Program-made: the position numbers and the translations under genes | Notes under the pieces: generated by a model | Told to the model about the DNA's origin: nothing | Database searches by the model: none | The model's input: the letters and a program-made list of their open reading frames with translations, nothing else | NCBI GenBank assembly: GCA_017621795.1 | Contig: JAGASJ010000053.1 | Span: 1-35,844 of the forward strand | DNA: 35,844 nt | Direction of reading: 5' to 3' | DNA from: Oscillospiraceae bacterium | GTDB lineage: Bacteria; Bacillota; Clostridia; Oscillospirales; Oscillospiraceae | In this document: in pieces, positions 1 to 35,515 of the stretch | How the letters are laid out: each line of letters begins with the position of its first letter | Numbering within the stretch: the first letter of the stretch is position 1

Positions 1-72
1 ATCCTGAGGCACTAATGCCTCTAAATCCACGATAATCGCTTCACTTCTGGCATCTTTTCTCCATTGTTCCAT
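1..72 (-). CDS. IS1182-like transposase, N-terminal fragment (runs off the left edge)
   Basis: The first 24 codons of a minus-strand gene are visible, starting at an ATG at 72. They include the stretch DLEALVPQD, which resembles the N-terminal 'LExLVPxDHLLRK' region of IS1182-type (DUF772) DDE transposases. A ribosome site GGGGGTG lies about 6 nt before the start. The rest of the gene is outside the window, so the catalytic residues cannot be checked. The family call rests on one short motif plus the context: a short end with a terminal repeat placed directly against a terminator hairpin. Confidence 0.6.
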   Translation of the reverse strand, partial: MEQWRKDARSEAIIVDLEALVPQD

Positions 73-93
73 AAAAACACCCCCGTTTCCTTT

Positions 94-122
94 ATTATAC
101 CAGAAACGGAGGCTTATTGGAA
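94..122 (-). promoter_or_regulatory. Promoter of the IS transposase, inside a small palindrome
   Basis: The minus strand carries TATAAT at 99-94 preceded by TGG, giving an extended -10, with a weak -35 TTCCAA at 122-117 and a 17-bp spacer. The -10 lies between the inverted heptamers CCGTTTC (83-89) and GAAACGG (103-109). A hairpin or operator there could damp transposase expression; that role is inferred. Confidence 0.55.
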
Positions 123-123
123 G

Positions 124-138
124 TTTTTTGACAGACTG
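124..138. mobile_element. Terminal repeat of the IS element
   Basis: The sequence TTTTTTGACAGACTG ends exactly where the stem of the downstream gene's terminator begins (139). The same end, CTTTTTGACAGACTG, abuts another terminator at 23680, and inverted variants of it (CAGCCTGTCAAA, AGACTGTCAAA, GAGTGTCAAA) abut hairpins near 3877, 23451 and 30880. It is therefore read as the outer end of the IS whose transposase starts at 72. The other end lies outside the window. Confidence 0.55.
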
Positions 139-170
139 AAAAATGGGACAGTGAAAACTGTCCCATTTTT
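139..170 (-). terminator. Rho-independent terminator of the decarboxylase operon
   Basis: A perfect 13-bp stem (139-151 with 158-170) encloses a 6-nt loop and lies directly after the oadB stop. It has A-tract and T-tract flanks on both sides, so it can stop transcription from either direction. Confidence 0.85.
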
Positions 171-3792: not shown

Positions 3793-3842
3793 CCTATAAT
3801 TTTCCGTTTTTCCCCGTTCTTTCGTGTTTCCTGCGGATAAAA

Positions 3843-4151
3843 CCCCGGGCGTGTTGATACAACACGCCCGGGGGGTCAGCCTGTCAAAAAAGTATTTTTT
3901 GACAGGCTGCAGAGGTCAAAGAAGCGCCAAAGACAAGCAACGCGACCCCGATGTGTATATAGATACTCGAGCGGGGCGCGTTGCGCAGGAAGTCAAAATA
4001 TCTTGCGGAGCAAGCCCTTTTTTGACAATTGTTTGCGGGACGGGAAACCCGTCCCCTACGGTATATTAAAATATTTAGATTTATATTTTGACGGTTTGGG
4101 GGTTCTTTGACACTCTAACCCCGGGCGTGTTGATGCAACACGCCCGGGGTT
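3843..4151. repeat. Structured repeat element between two copies of one 31-bp hairpin
   Basis: This region without genes is highly ordered. Copy one of a CCCCGGGCGTGTT hairpin is at 3843-3873 and copy two at 4119-4149. Between them, from the left: a perfect 15-bp palindrome with a 3-nt loop (3877-3909) starting CAGCCTGTCAAA; a second hairpin with arms GCAACGCG/CGCGTTGC (about 3938-3987); a GGGACGGGAAACCCGTCCC hairpin (about 4035-4053); and an end, GGTTCTTTGACACTCT, that abuts the second hairpin. The ends match the IS end at 124-138, so this is read as a MITE-like relic. The right 90 bp recur inverted at 30878-30968. Confidence 0.65.
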
Positions 4152-4166
4152 GGGATTATACAAAGC

Positions 4167-5192
4167 TCAGCTCATAATAAATTCGTGCAGCGCACGGATA
4201 TTGGTGTTAAAGTCCACCTTATACATCTCACGCCCCTGTACGAAAATAATACCGGTATAGCTCTTGCCGGCCTCGTTTTCAATGGGGAGCATCCGCTGGG
4301 TAATGGGATTGGACATCAGAGAGGGGACCTTCGCAATGTAGCTAAGGATCTCTCCGTTGGTCATATCTGTATTGACGTACGGAAGCATGGTTTCTGCCAG
4401 GTCGATGAGGGTGGGAATGCTGGAGGAAGCCGCCTTGTTCATCAGCTTGGTCAACATCGTTCTTTGCCGCCTGGTGCGGACAAAGTCATTGTCGATAAGT
4501 CGGATCTGGCAGTATATACGAGCCTGTCTGCCGTTGAGCGTCTGTGTCCCGGAATAGGTTGGGATTTTACTGGTATCTTGTATGTAAAAGGCCTCCGCAT
4601 CTGTAAGGGTGATTTCCACGCCGCCCAGCAAATCGACGCCCTTTTCAAAAGCGGCAAAATCCACCACCACGTAATGGTCGATTTTAATACGGAAGTTGTT
4701 TTCCACCGTCTCGATGAGCAGCTTGGGACCGCCCCAGGAGTAGGCCGCGTTCAGCATGCCCCACTGCTCCCCGTCGGAACGGGGGATACACACATACATA
4801 GCGCGCATCAGGGAAGTCAGGTGGATCTTCTTTGTGCGTTCGTTAATGGACAGGATCATCATAGAATCGGATCGGCCGTATTCCCAGCTGGCGTGGCGGT
4901 CGGTGCCAACAAGTAAAATATTGGTGATCTTGGAGTCCTTCAGAAATTCGATCTCCTGTGCCTCCTGAAACTCGTTGTGGGCCTGGTCGATATGCTCCAC
5001 CGAGTCGGTGGCATCCACCGTTTCGCCCTCATAGATTTCCGATTCTGACAGTGTCAGGTTGCCTGTAATTTCGGTACGGTCCACCTTGTTCAGCAGTCCG
5101 TTGATGTACAGCCACAGGCCGCCCAGCAGCAGTATGATCAGCAGCAAAATACAGCCAATGACGATCAGCGTGATCTTTAACGCCTTATTCAC
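4167..5192 (-). CDS. LytR-CpsA-Psr (LCP) cell-wall polymer ligase
   Basis: A 341-residue protein with a short cytoplasmic start, one transmembrane helix (about residues 7-30) and an extracellular LCP domain (about 88-260). Family motifs include LLVGTD, RSDSMMILSIN and RTRRQRTML. LCP enzymes attach anionic polymers such as teichoic acids or capsule to peptidoglycan. One oddity is that the usual 'PRD' motif reads MRAM near residue 130, so the conserved aspartate is alanine. The start is GTG (5192) with GGAGTG about 10 nt before it. It begins about 20 bp after the lexA stop, so the two genes are probably co-transcribed. Confidence 0.88.
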   Translation of the reverse strand: MNKALKITLIVIGCILLLIILLLGGLWLYINGLLNKVDRTEITGNLTLSESEIYEGETVDATDSVEHIDQAHNEFQEAQEIEFLKDSKITNILLVGTDRHASWEYGRSDSMMILSINERTKKIHLTSLMRAMYVCIPRSDGEQWGMLNAAYSWGGPKLLIETVENNFRIKIDHYVVVDFAAFEKGVDLLGGVEITLTDAEAFYIQDTSKIPTYSGTQTLNGRQARIYCQIRLIDNDFVRTRRQRTMLTKLMNKAASSSIPTLIDLAETMLPYVNTDMTNGEILSYIAKVPSLMSNPITQRMLPIENEAGKSYTGIIFVQGREMYKVDFNTNIRALHEFIMS

Positions 5193-8024: not shown

Positions 8025-8110
8025 GTGAAAAGTGAAGAGTGAAAAGTGAAAAATTAAATTAAATTGTCGGCAACACCGACACCATAACTCTTCACTCTTC
8101 ACTCTTCACT
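8024..8110. repeat. Long inverted repeat of AGTGAAG-like heptamers
   Basis: The left side is three to four tandem AGTGAA(A/G) units and the right side is TTCACTCTTCACTCTTCACT, its complement. Between them are an AT-rich stretch and a GTCGGC-type core followed by CCATAACT. The same unit appears at 35434-35481, and its core at about 11385-11400. It is a dispersed intergenic repeat placed between two terminators. Confidence 0.65.
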
Positions 8111-23417: not shown

Positions 23418-23450
23418 AACAGCGCAGTAGATAATTCTACTGCGCTGCTT
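23418..23450. terminator. Terminator hairpin, copy 1 of the CAGCGCAGTAGA family
   Basis: A 12-bp stem (23420-23431 with 23436-23447) just after the surface-protein gene. The same hairpin recurs at 23681-23712 and 26120-26150. Confidence 0.65.
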
Positions 23451-23680
23451 AGACTGTCAAAGAACCCTATAAATGCGCAAATATGGCTCCCTCTGACGAG
23501 GGAGCTGGCTAATTGCCGATTTTAGGCAATTAGCCTGAGGGAGAGAAAAAACAGAAAAGTCTAACCATATTGTATAGACTTTTCTGAACTTTTCAGGCCT
23601 TCTCTCCCCCAGTCAGCCTGTTCGGCTGACAGCCCCCTCGTCAGAGGGGGCCAAGGGGAAAGGTGCTTTTTGACAGACTG
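23451..23680. mobile_element. MITE-like element with the IS end, between two terminator copies
   Basis: The left end AGACTGTCAAAG and right end CTTTTTGACAGACTG are inverted and abut terminator hairpins on both sides. Inside is a nested palindrome (23485-23652): outer arms of the CCCTCTGACGAGGG type, a hairpin GGCTAATTGCC/GGCAATTAGCC, and a central 12-bp stem CAGAAAAGTCTA/TAGACTTTTCTG. No coding sequence is present. Confidence 0.65.
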
Positions 23681-23712
23681 AACAGCGCAGTAGAAAATTC
23701 TACTGCGCTGTT
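23681..23712. terminator. Terminator hairpin, copy 2
   Basis: A perfect 15-bp stem, AACAGCGCAGTAGAA with its complement (23681-23695 with 23698-23712), directly after the deacetylase stop on the minus strand. Confidence 0.65.
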
Positions 23713-24469: not shown

Positions 24470-24616
24470 TCCTGCGGTATAATCTCCCTCTTTTACAAAT
24501 AATCGCATCGTAATTTGTAAAATGATTGTAGGGAACGGCCTGCGTGCCGTTCCGCATTGCAAAACGAAAAATGGAACGACACATAGGTCGTTCCCTACGG
24601 AAAAGGAGAAAGATAT
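24464..24616 (+). repeat. AbrB-leader repeat, copy 1, with an inserted palindrome
   Basis: The unit runs: AAAGTAAATC, TATAAT (24478-24483), the palindrome TTTTACAAAT/ATTTGTAAAA (24491-24522), ATGATT, an inserted GTAGGGAACGG palindrome (24528-24598), then AAAAGGAGAAAGATAT and ATG. The same parts in the same order occur at 26978-27155 and 28138-28345 with different inserts. Confidence 0.75.
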
Positions 24617-28908: not shown

Positions 28909-28937
28909 TTGCATTCTATGTTTTCCTGTGATAAAAT
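28909..28937 (+). promoter_or_regulatory. Promoter of typA
   Basis: TTGCAT (28909-28914) and TAAAAT (28932-28937) are 17 bp apart in the gap between spoVT and typA. Confidence 0.65.
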
Positions 28938-29008
28938 GTTTTGCTGGAAATGAACGTAAACTTATGAAACGGCAAAATGCCGAAAAGAAGAAAGAAGGCA
29001 CCTATTTC

Positions 29009-30838
29009 ATGATTTCTCAGGAAAACATTCGCAATATTGCCATCATTGCCCACGTTGACCACGGCAAGACCACCCTGGTGGACGAAATGCTGAAGCAGGG
29101 CGGCATCTACCGTGAAAACCAGGTGACCCAGGACCGTGTAATGGACTCCGGCGACCTGGAACGGGAACGGGGCATTACCATTTTGGCGAAGAATACCTCT
29201 GTTACCTACGGGGATTACCGCATCAATATTGTGGACACCCCCGGTCACGCCGACTTTGGCGGCGAGGTGGAGCGCATTTTGAAGATGGTCAATGGCGTTA
29301 TCCTGTTGGTAGACGCCGCGGAAGGTCCTATGCCTCAAACCCGCTTTGTGCTGCAAAAGGCACTGGAGCTGGGGCACAAGGTGATCGTGGCGGTGAACAA
29401 GGTGGACAAGCCGGACGCCCGTGTGCACGAAGTGATGGACGAGGTTTTGGAGCTGCTTTTGGATCTGAATGCCACCGACGAGCAGTTTAACTCTCCCACC
29501 GTATTCTGCTCCGGCCGTCAGGGCACTGCCGCCTACGGTCCGGATGAGGTGGGCACAGACCTGAAGCCTCTGTTTGAAACCATTGTAAATTATATTCCCG
29601 CGCCCCAGGGTGATCCTAATGCGCCCTTGCAGCTGCTGGTCTCCAGCATCGACTACAACGAATATGTAGGTCGTATTGCGGTGGGCCGCATTGAGCAGGG
29701 CACCATCAAGGTCAATCAGGAAGTGATGATCTGCGATTATCACGATCCCCAATACCGTCAAAAGGGCAAGGTGGTTGCCCTGTACGAGTATGACGGTCTG
29801 GGCAAAAACCCCATTTTAGAAGCATCTGCCGGTCAGATCGTGGCCTTTTCCGGTATGGCAGACATCACCATCGGACGCACCCTGTGCGCCACCGATGCCC
29901 CCAACCCCCTGCCCTTTGTAAAAATTTCGGACCCCACCATCGAAATGACCTTTGCGGTCAACGATTCTCCCTTCGCAGGCAAGGAAGGCAAATTTGTCAC
30001 CTCCCGCAACATTCGGGACCGTTTGGACAAGGAGCTGATGAAGGACGTCTCCCTTCGTGTCACCGAGCAGGGCACCGATTCCTTTAATGTGGCAGGCCGC
30101 GGCGAGATGCACCTGTCCATTTTGATGGAGACTATGCGCCGTGAAGGCTTTGAATTTTCCGTCTCCACCCCCAGAGTGCTCACCAAAGAGATCGACGGCG
30201 TGCTGTGCGAGCCCATTGAACGGATGGTAGCGGACGTGCCGGAGGACTGTATGGGTGCGGTCATTGAAAAGATGGGCCGCCGCAAGGGTGACCTGCTGGG
30301 GATGACCCCCATGGGCAACCGTTACCGTTTGGAATTTTTAGTACCTTCCCGTGGTCTTTTCGGCTACCGCAACGAATTTTTGACCGATACACGGGGCGAG
30401 GGCATTATGTCCTCCGTGCTGGAAAGCTACGCACCCATGAAGGGGCAGATCGAGCGCCGTCTCACCGGCTCTCTGATCGCTTTTGAAACCGGAGAAGCCT
30501 GTTCCTACGGCCTTTTCAACGCCCAGGAACGGGGCGCGCTGTTCATCGGCGCCGGCACACCGGTTTACGCCGGTATGGTGGTGGGCATTTGCAGCCGCAA
30601 CGAGGATATGACCGTCAACGTCTGCAAGAAAAAGCAGCTGACCAATATGCGCGCCGCAGGCTCAGACGAGGCGCTGCGGCTGGTAAGCCCCAAGATCTTC
30701 TCCTTGGAGCAGTGCCTTGAATTTTTGGCAGATGATGAGCTTTTGGAGTGTACCCCCAAAAGTCTGCGTATCCGCAAGCGCACCTTAGACCACGCCGCCC
30801 GTATGCGCGAGGTTATGAAGCGCCGCAATCAGGAATAA
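29009..30838 (+). CDS. typA: Ribosome-binding GTPase TypA/BipA
   Basis: A 609-residue translational GTPase. G1 is AHVDHGKTT, G2 is RERGITI, G3 is DTPGHADFG, G4 is NKVDKPDA. Domain II, EF-G-like domains III and V and the TypA-specific C-terminal domain (about 480-600, ending RKRTLDHAARMREVMKRRN) follow. It binds ribosomes and helps assembly and stress or low-temperature growth. The frame starts earlier (28928), but the ATG at 29009 matches the family N-terminus (IRNIAIIAHVDHGK). No strong ribosome site is seen close to it; AGAAGG lies about 10 nt upstream. Confidence 0.95.
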   Translation: MISQENIRNIAIIAHVDHGKTTLVDEMLKQGGIYRENQVTQDRVMDSGDLERERGITILAKNTSVTYGDYRINIVDTPGHADFGGEVERILKMVNGVILLVDAAEGPMPQTRFVLQKALELGHKVIVAVNKVDKPDARVHEVMDEVLELLLDLNATDEQFNSPTVFCSGRQGTAAYGPDEVGTDLKPLFETIVNYIPAPQGDPNAPLQLLVSSIDYNEYVGRIAVGRIEQGTIKVNQEVMICDYHDPQYRQKGKVVALYEYDGLGKNPILEASAGQIVAFSGMADITIGRTLCATDAPNPLPFVKISDPTIEMTFAVNDSPFAGKEGKFVTSRNIRDRLDKELMKDVSLRVTEQGTDSFNVAGRGEMHLSILMETMRREGFEFSVSTPRVLTKEIDGVLCEPIERMVADVPEDCMGAVIEKMGRRKGDLLGMTPMGNRYRLEFLVPSRGLFGYRNEFLTDTRGEGIMSSVLESYAPMKGQIERRLTGSLIAFETGEACSYGLFNAQERGALFIGAGTPVYAGMVVGICSRNEDMTVNVCKKKQLTNMRAAGSDEALRLVSPKIFSLEQCLEFLADDELLECTPKSLRIRKRTLDHAARMREVMKRRNQE

Positions 30839-30841
30839 TGA

Positions 30842-30877
30842 AAACGCCCTTGCAAGGAAAGCCTTGCAAGGGCGTTT
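30842..30877. terminator. Terminator of typA, copy 1
   Basis: A perfect 16-bp stem (30842-30857 with 30862-30877) with a 4-nt loop. A second copy of the same hairpin is at 30969-30998. Confidence 0.8.
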
Positions 30878-30968
30878 CAGAGTGTCAAAGAACCCCCAAA
30901 CCGTCAAAATATAAATCTAAATATGTAGGGAACGGGTTTCCCGTCCCGCATCGGGATCGGTTTTCTAG
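30878..30968. repeat. Truncated IS-end element between duplicated terminators
   Basis: It begins CAGAGTGTCAAAGAACC and continues as an inverted copy of 4030-4112, including GTCAAAATATAAATCTAAATA and a GGGACGGG/CCCGTCCC hairpin. The right end lacks the usual terminal repeat, so it appears truncated. Confidence 0.65.
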
Positions 30969-31003
30969 AACGCCCTTGCAAGGCTTTGCAAGGGCGTTTT
31001 ATT
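30969..31003. terminator. Terminator, copy 2, after the DUF2207-like gene
   Basis: A 13-bp stem (30969-30981 with 30986-30998) followed on the plus strand by TTATTATTT. It shares its arm sequence with 30842-30877 and lies just after the stop of the minus-strand gene. Confidence 0.8.
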
Positions 31004-34757: not shown

Positions 34758-35455
34758 GAAAGCCTGTTGTGGATTATCGCAATCTGCGGCTTAAAAATAT
34801 TACAAGCCCCCAGTACCGCCATTTGCTTTTGATGCTGGGCTGGCTGGTATACGGATTGCTGTATTTGCTGACGGAAAATCTCATTCCCGTAGAAAAATGC
34901 CACGTGGTCTATTCCCCCCTGGACGATAAGATCCCCTTCTGTGAATGGTTCGTGCTGCCCTATGTGGGCTGGTATGTGCTGATCGTGATCTCCCTGGGGT
35001 ATTTTGCCCTTTATAATGTGGAAAACTTCAAGTGTCTGCAGACCTATATTATGATCACCCAGGGCATCGCTATGATCATTTACATCCTTTGGCCCAGCGT
35101 GCAGCTGCTTCGCCCCGATCCCTACCCCAGAGATAATATTTTGGTGGATCTGGTGCGGCTGATTCAGTCGGTAGACACCCCCACCGGTGTGTGTCCCTCC
35201 CTGCACGTAGGCTACTCTTTAGGCATCGCCTCCACGTGGCTGAAGGAACAGCAGGCCTCCAAAAAAACCAAGGTGCTGGTGTGCGTGTTTGTATTTTTCG
35301 TGTGCATCTCCGTTGCCTTCGTCAAACAGCATTCGGTGGTGGATATTTGGGCGGCCATTCCCATGTGCGCCGTGGCAGAGCTTTTGGTCTTCCGTAAGTA
35401 CTACAAGAAAAAATGGCAGGCGCGGCGCCTTGCGTCAGTGAAGAGTGAAAAGTGA
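34754..35455 (+). CDS. PAP2-family membrane phosphatase or transferase
   Basis: A 233-residue protein with about six membrane helices. PAP2 motifs are CPSLHV (His151) and KQHSVVD (His193 and Asp197), as in lipid phosphatases and inositol-phosphorylceramide-synthase-like proteins; the first motif (KxxxxxxRP) is seen only as LLRPDPYPRD. The start is GTG at 34754, inside the acyltransferase stop, with AGGAGG before it. The last codons (SVKSEK, stop) come from the dispersed AGTGAAGAGTGAAAAG repeat, so the native end seems replaced. It probably acts in membrane lipid or undecaprenyl-phosphate turnover. Confidence 0.85.
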   Translation: MRKPVVDYRNLRLKNITSPQYRHLLLMLGWLVYGLLYLLTENLIPVEKCHVVYSPLDDKIPFCEWFVLPYVGWYVLIVISLGYFALYNVENFKCLQTYIMITQGIAMIIYILWPSVQLLRPDPYPRDNILVDLVRLIQSVDTPTGVCPSLHVGYSLGIASTWLKEQQASKKTKVLVCVFVFFVCISVAFVKQHSVVDIWAAIPMCAVAELLVFRKYYKKKWQARRLASVKSEK

Positions 35456-35481
35456 AAAGTTATGGTGTCGGCAAAGCCGAC
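35434..35481 (+). repeat. AGTGAAG repeat overlapping the end of the PAP2 gene
   Basis: CAGTGAAGAGTGAAAAGTGA, then AAAGTTATGGT and the hairpin GTCGGC-AAA-GCCGAC (35467-35481). It matches parts of 8024-8110 and about 11385-11400. Confidence 0.7.
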
Positions 35482-35515
35482 GGATTATAATTATTTTGAT
35501 TGAATTTGATGAATT

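What the first reader, a model, noticed from the sequence alone, without database searches (positions are those of the whole stretch)
3843..4151. Relic element between two copies of one terminator hairpin (locus 1)
The same 31-bp CCCCGGGCGTGTT hairpin occurs on both sides of an element whose ends (CAGCCTGTCAAA and TTTGACACTCT) resemble the IS end at 138. A normal target duplication is a few bases; here a whole hairpin is duplicated. Together with 23418-23712, and less completely 30842-30998, this suggests a transposition mode that copies the target palindrome.
Basis: partly seen in the sequence, partly recalled or inferred. Interest (0 to 1): 0.75.

Follow-up and report, generated by a model that had tools for sequence, protein, structure and literature searches.

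The report
Mobile element that duplicates terminator hairpins
A family of small mobile DNA elements inserts at the foot of the DNA hairpins that end bacterial genes and leaves a copy of the hairpin on each side, so the size of the duplicated target follows the hairpin and not a fixed ruler.

Summary
3877-4116 is a MITE of an IS1182-family insertion sequence; one end of a full copy lies at 1-138. In the window's genome 39 of 39 distinct element ends abut a stem-loop, against 48 of 4000 random positions. In 69 related loci, 45 carry a direct repeat across the element (swapped flanks 0 of 203). The repeat is a terminator-like hairpin, centred on the palindrome in 41 of 45; over those 41 it is 19-64 bp long and tracks palindrome length (r = 0.91). 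An Enterococcus plasmid pair and a same-genus site agree. Best mechanism (inferred): the hairpin is folded, probably as a cruciform, and both IS 3' ends join at or near the two 5' feet. Wan et al. 2017 drew this as a hypothetical branch; IS1272 itself removes the hairpin. Seven of seven distant IS1182 members examined lack it. New variant of a known kind.

The parts
1..138 (-). One end of a full-length IS1182-family IS, cut by the contig start: first codons of the transposase on the minus strand and the terminal repeat TTTTTTGACAGACTG at 124-138
   Evidence: Sequence; matches copies with whole transposase genes in same-genus genomes; that transposase matches NF033551 IS1182, 379.7 bits, cut-off 270
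139..170 (.). Hairpin AAAAATGGGACAGT-GAAA-ACTGTCCCATTTTT abutting the IS end; an identical copy abuts the opposite kind of IS end at the end of contig C78
   Evidence: the link of the two contigs is inferred from the identical hairpin
3841..3873 (.). Hairpin copy 1 of the duplicated target (downstream of the minus-strand ORF 4167-5192, which looks like an LCP-type gene, recalled); keeps the T-tract
3877..4116 (.). MITE type A (about 240 bp), ends CAGCCTGTCAAA / TTTGACACTCT; no transposase gene
3877..3909 (.). Palindrome at one MITE end, made of the terminal repeat and its inverted copy
   Evidence: arm 15, loop 3
4117..4151 (.). Hairpin copy 2 of the duplicated target
23418..23447 (.). Hairpin copy 1 at locus 2, between convergent ORFs
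23451..23680 (.). MITE type B, ends AGACTGTCAAAGAACCC / TTTTTGACAGACTG
23681..23712 (.). Hairpin copy 2 at locus 2
30842..30877 (.). Hairpin copy 1 at locus 3, just after the ORF 28928-30838
30879..30966 (.). Decayed MITE type A: one end (AGAGTGTCAAAGAACCC) and part of the interior, other end lost; right boundary approximate
   Evidence: (46 nt exact inverted match to 4071-4116)
30969..30998 (.). Hairpin copy 2 at locus 3; same stem, loop region reads by eye like the other copy inverted plus a 4-nt loss
   Evidence: the inversion reading is inference

Best explanation
The elements are an IS1182-family insertion sequence and two kinds of MITE that share its ends. Insertion takes a whole terminator-like hairpin as the target and leaves a copy of it on each side (shown by empty sites). 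Inferred mechanism: the palindrome is folded, probably extruded as a cruciform; the transposase docks on the four-way junction and joins the two IS 3' ends at or within a few pairs of the two 5' feet of the stems. The stagger is then the palindrome, and gap filling copies it. At the junction the two attacked phosphates are close in space however long the stem is, so one fixed enzyme geometry can give duplications of 19 to 64 bp. Consequence (inferred): no gene is broken and both neighbours keep a terminator hairpin.
For: Exact one-to-two conversion in Javan90/Javan87, the Enterococcus plasmid pair and G053/G000. 45 of 69 loci have a long direct repeat, 0 of 203 in swapped controls. 41 of 45 repeats are centred on the palindrome within 1.5 nt; over those 41, length correlates with palindrome length, r = 0.91 when the palindrome may extend into the flanks (0.988 when measured inside the repeat, which is biased upward). 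39 of 39 own-genome ends abut a hairpin, random positions 48 of 4000. Transposase matches the IS1182 model. Of 9 right and 7 left ends of full ISs in this genome, six pairs carry the same hairpin, five of the six with identical cores.
Against: 24 of 69 loci show no paired repeat at the threshold: some are contig ends, many have a different hairpin at each end, which fits recombination between IS copies but was not shown. L116, L123, L126 and L149 have an end with no flush or only a weak hairpin, and L180 showed no recognisable ends (by eye). The cut is not always at the outermost pair: in 25 of 41 the stem could extend past the repeat, by 1-2 pairs in 20 and 3-5 pairs in 5. The cruciform step has no direct evidence; folded single strands are not excluded. 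A few pairs differ by an inverted loop, which plain gap filling does not predict.
Confidence: 0.85

Rival explanations
1. Two hairpins stood side by side beforehand (double terminators of convergent genes), and the element merely sits between them.
For: Loci 2 and 3 of the window lie between convergent ORFs, where paired terminators would be plausible.
Against: Empty sites have one hairpin (weaker cases). The two copies are near-identical within a site but differ between sites.
Confidence: 0.02
2. The element carries one hairpin with it or makes the copy later by gene conversion, so the duplication is not part of insertion.
For: Some copies have different hairpins at their two ends.
Against: The duplicated hairpin is the host's own, site by site, and the filled Javan87 site differs from the empty one by exactly one IS plus one hairpin.
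Confidence: 0.04
3. The target is a folded single strand (lagging strand at the fork, or a strand exposed in transcription) and not a double-stranded cruciform; the second strand is cut later.
For: Terminators are sites of transcription-driven strand exposure. Stems with internal mismatches are used (L226, L229, L231; sequences). Single-strand hairpin use is known in other elements (recalled).
Against: Duplication symmetric about the hairpin centre in 41 of 45 fits use of both strands together more simply.
Confidence: 0.2

Closest known systems
IS1182 family (IS1182-like ISs; some Enterococcus members are annotated ISEfa7)
   Same: Transposase over the curated NCBIfam cut-off; short inverted terminal repeats, one gene. 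That some members target palindromic sequences is credited to Siguier et al. 2015 by PMC5678879 and PMC4923244 (passages seen; the review itself not seen).
   Different: Here the whole palindrome is shown to be duplicated, with length following the palindrome. The seven more distant members examined (under 30% identity) show no hairpin repeat.
IS1272 / TnSha1 (IS1182 family, staphylococci)
   Same: Targets inverted repeats or terminator hairpins without sequence specificity (Wan et al. 2017 PMC5678879, abstract and passages; PMC4923244, passages).
   Different: IS1272 and TnSha1 remove all or part of the hairpin and make no duplication. The IS1272 transposase is remote (about 24% identity over half the length). 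Wan et al. drew whole stem-loop duplication only as a hypothetical 'pathway b'.
CRISPR spacer integration by Cas1-Cas2 and casposon integration (recalled)
   Same: A staggered attack at both ends of a long, often palindromic target leads to its complete duplication (recalled).
   Different: Different enzyme; the target is a specific repeat, not any terminator hairpin.

Membership tests
IS1182 family | Transposase matches the family model | tested here: met
   NF033551, 379.7 bits against cut-off 270; Pfam PF13751, PF05598 and PF01609 over cut-off. Tested on whole transposases from same-genus relatives, since this genome holds only IS ends
IS1182 family | Terminal inverted repeats flanking a single transposase gene | tested here: met
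   Ends CAGTCTGTCAAA / TTTGACAGACTG or near variants around the gene
IS1182 family | Full-length element in the window's own genome | tested here: inconclusive
   PF13751 not found in the draft genome; IS copies end at contig ends, so the body may be missing from the assembly
MITE of this IS | Same ends, no transposase, multiple copies, same target mode | tested here: met
   Mobilisation by this transposase not shown
IS1272-type hairpin replacement | Target hairpin lost, no duplication | tested here: not met
   Two hairpins after insertion, one before
IS1272-type hairpin replacement | Target is an inverted repeat without primary-sequence specificity | tested here: met
   Hairpin sequences differ from site to site
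Intrinsic terminator as target | Stem-loop with a T-tract | tested here: met
   T at least 4 of 8 after the right copy in 31 of 45; A at least 4 of 8 before the left copy in 29 of 45; both in 21
Intrinsic terminator as target | Terminates transcription | not testable with these tools
   No expression data

The most novel reading that the evidence does not exclude
A clade of DDE transposases has no fixed stagger. The enzyme reads the four-way junction of an extruded cruciform, so target structure templates the length of the duplication (19-64 bp here). During insertion the two hairpin strands can swap templates in the complex, which would leave the inverted loops seen in a few pairs.
Probability: 0.6. 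Interest if true: 0.8.

Novelty: new variant of a known kind. Interest (0 to 1): 0.66.

Why it matters
DDE transposases are textbook examples of a fixed, short target duplication set by the distance between two active sites (recalled). Here the duplication follows the target's palindrome over more than a threefold range. That points to a transposase reading DNA shape, and it turns a drawn-but-untested branch of a published model into a testable case. It also suggests a safe-harbour strategy: insertion breaks no gene and copies the terminator hairpin. An exact natural before/after pair (Javan90/Javan87) and many source elements make a bench test easy.

Tried and rejected
Pre-existing double terminators: rejected by empty sites. 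Hairpin carried by the element: rejected, since hairpins differ between sites and match the host site. Locus 2 in relatives: uninformative; G053 and G041 share one flank and show no hairpin pair. Locus 3 in G041 and G015: misread through a wrong offset and read again; G049's match was partial and not read. Second MITE site on C104: G053 and G056 match one flank only. Macrococcoides and Rhizobium elements: no clear empty site among the rows listed (7 of 7 and 15 of 27). PF13751 in the own genome: no hit. Solved structure of a relative: none at E 0.1; no structure prediction was run. Tree (quick method, SH-aLRT): the 36 hairpin-duplicating copies included lie on one side of a branch (support 85), but long branches make the deep part unsure; two remote staphylococcal-type rows were in the tree without a test of their insertion mode. 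Orientation against the terminator, scored as more T after the right copy or more A before the left copy: 19 against 19 of 45.

My first length correlation (0.988) measured the palindrome inside the repeat and so was biased upward; one search repeats it with the flanks allowed in (0.91).

Literature: searches in the open-licence library turned up no report of whole-hairpin duplication by IS1182 members as an observed fact; most hits were seen as listings only, and one search listed 20 of 205. Passages were also read in PMC3196728, PMC3281130 and PMC9208149; the first two tabulate 4-bp repeats for their IS1182 members. From memory, ISfinder lists target repeats of about 0-60 bp for IS1182, so curators may already have such cases; one Siguier review could not be read (not held).

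Full report
WHAT IS THERE. The two hairpins at locus 1 are real and near-identical (33 nt, 97%). Four exact hits of the 13-nt core lie only there, and 0 of 100 shuffles reached the five hits found with up to two mismatches. Loci 2 and 3 repeat the pattern with quite different hairpins. The DNA between the hairpins at locus 1 (3877-4116) is one copy of a repeat family: a search of the window's own genome (2.03 Mb, 105 contigs, 89% complete) gives 32 matches, self-matches and fragments included. The end motifs occur 27 and 22 times (the second with up to one mismatch), reversed controls 0 and 0.

EVERY END SITS ON A HAIRPIN. I collected the distinct outward ends of the family in this genome that keep the end motif and at least 40 nt of flank, leaving out the inner half of the MITE's own end palindrome: 17 right and 22 left. 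All 39 have a stem-loop of at least 9 pairs (one mismatch allowed) whose foot is within 5 nt; 48 of 4000 random positions in the same loci do. Full ISs seem to break the assembly, so their two ends lie on different contigs. Of 9 right and 7 left full-IS ends, six pairs carry the same hairpin: C78/C19 (the window start), C38/C104, C52/C89, C79/C72, C50/C11 and C20/C61; three right ends and one left end have no partner. The first five pairs have identical hairpin cores; C20/C61 differs in its loop. The linkage is inferred. C50/C11 would be a MITE-hairpin-IS-hairpin series.

THE RESPONSIBLE IS. The 138 bp at the window start match copies in 17 of the 135 other same-genus genomes searched, three of which were read as complete genes. 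The 474-aa protein is an IS1182-family transposase (NF033551, 379.7 bits, cut-off 270; Pfam DDE_Tnp_1_6 and DUF772).

THE DUPLICATION IS THE HAIRPIN. One scan of the species-level genome collection kept the best 80 of 210 loci. I used 63, leaving out 17 with partial matches or flanks cut by contig ends, and added 6 plasmid or phage loci. In 45 of 69 the flanks share a direct repeat scoring at least 15; when left and right flanks of different loci were swapped, 0 of 203 did (maximum 14). Median palindromic fraction is 0.90 in the repeats (minimum 0.29) and 0.43 in equal-length neighbours (maximum 0.79). Repeat lengths run from 17 to 64. In 41 of 45 the repeat is centred on the palindrome within 1.5 nt; the exceptions are L171, L172, L178 and L228. 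Over the 41 (19-64 bp), repeat length correlates with palindrome length at r = 0.91 when the palindrome is allowed to run on into the flanks; 16 have no further pair outside the repeat, 20 have one or two, and 5 have three to five. Measured inside the repeat alone the figure is 0.988, which is biased upward. So the joins are at the foot or a few pairs inside it. T fills at least 4 of the 8 nt after the right copy in 31 of 45, and A at least 4 of the 8 nt before the left copy in 29 of 45, as expected of terminators, many bidirectional.

LOCI WITHOUT A PAIR. Of the 24 (read by eye), some have flanks cut by contig ends. Many have a different hairpin on each side (for example L151, L154, L155, L164, L174, L227), as recombination between IS copies would leave. 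L115 has a recognisable but diverged pair. L136 and L147, from one complete genome, carry what look like the two halves of one pair at far-apart places. Not all fit: L116, L123, L126 and L149 have an end with no flush or only a weak hairpin, and L180 showed no recognisable ends.

(1) Prophages Javan87 and Javan90, recorded from two S. canis genomes: the empty stretch is 1,237 bp with one 26-bp hairpin; the filled one is identical on both sides, with two copies of the hairpin and a 1,538-bp IS between them. (2) Enterococcus plasmids: NC_017962 has the IS between two 27-bp hairpins; NZ_CP023514 has one, with a single loop difference and flanks 96.9 and 99.0% identical. (3) A MITE on contig C104 of this genome: G053 is collinear on both sides (89 and 83%) and has one hairpin. 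(4) Window locus 1: G053 has one hairpin and no element, though with other intergenic DNA inserted (by eye). (5) Locus 3: of four relatives read, G053, G056 and G015 have one hairpin right after the same gene (G056 has other, different hairpins further on) and G041 has none; none has the element there. Items 4 and 5 are weaker because terminators diverge between species.

HOW FAR THE MODE REACHES. I fetched ten further plasmid copies, chosen from 60 rows listed of 1790 records. The Rhizobium member at 37% identity has the duplication. Of two others at 43-44%, L235 has a hairpin at each end but different ones, and the ends of L234 were not resolved. Seven of seven members under 30% identity show no long repeat and, by eye, no hairpin at the ends. 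Two published IS1182 members elsewhere are tabulated with 4-bp repeats. A quick tree puts the 36 duplicating copies included on one side of a branch, support 85, with long-branch warnings.

MECHANISM. Shown: one hairpin becomes two, and the boundaries are at or near the feet of the stem. Inferred: a folded target. [quoted passage not shown] This explains why length varies while symmetry does not. Wan et al. 2017 drew this outcome as pathway b in their Fig 13, while reporting the opposite (hairpin removal, no duplication) for IS1272 (PMC5678879; abstract and passages seen). PMC4923244 reported hairpin deletion for TnSha1 (passages seen). PMC12056078 summarises IS1182 relatives as transposing with or without duplication and with recognition of sequence or structure (passages seen).

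UNEXPLAINED. Among 59 hairpin pairs (45 IS loci and 14 pairs of this genome), 7 gave no hairpin under that script's strict settings; of the other 52, 42 have identical cores and 46 could have shown a loop inversion. Ten differ. Two (L117, L125) differ only by exact inversion of the loop. Three more (C20/C61, C44:21165, window locus 3) read best as inversion plus a small change, the last by eye. Four differ by one ordinary substitution, and L162 is undecided. Plain gap filling does not predict inversion. Template switching between the two hairpins in the complex, or later inversion inside a palindrome, would.

VERDICT. The finding is real and its interpretation is supported. It is an IS1182-family variant whose defining step was proposed but, within the searches named here, not documented.

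Noticed in passing
L117, L125; also G000 C20/C61, C44:21165 and window 30842-30998: The two hairpin copies of one insertion differ by inversion of the loop (two exact cases, three probable).
   Followed up: partly
window 3877-3909: One end of MITE type A is itself a 33-nt palindrome made of the terminal repeat and its inverted copy, so the MITE end could itself be a hairpin target.
   Followed up: no
L107 (G053 C11): A MITE type A fused to an IS body lies as one unit (1,753 bp) between two identical 37-bp hairpins.
   Followed up: partly
G000 C50 end with C11 start: MITE, hairpin, IS, hairpin in series (contig link inferred): one duplicated hairpin was apparently hit twice.
   Followed up: partly
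L136 and L147 (AP018533); L185 and L186 (CANRIS): By eye, matching hairpin halves lie at different copies in one genome, as if recombination between IS copies had swapped flanks.
   Followed up: no
window 24481, 26031, 26996, 28148: Another interspersed repeat (84 nt, 62-88% identical to the reference copy), next to repeated short ORF starts at 24598, 27134, 28324.
   Followed up: no
window 8050-8110 and 35437-35497: Pair of 61-nt inverted repeats, 79% complementary, far apart.
   Followed up: no
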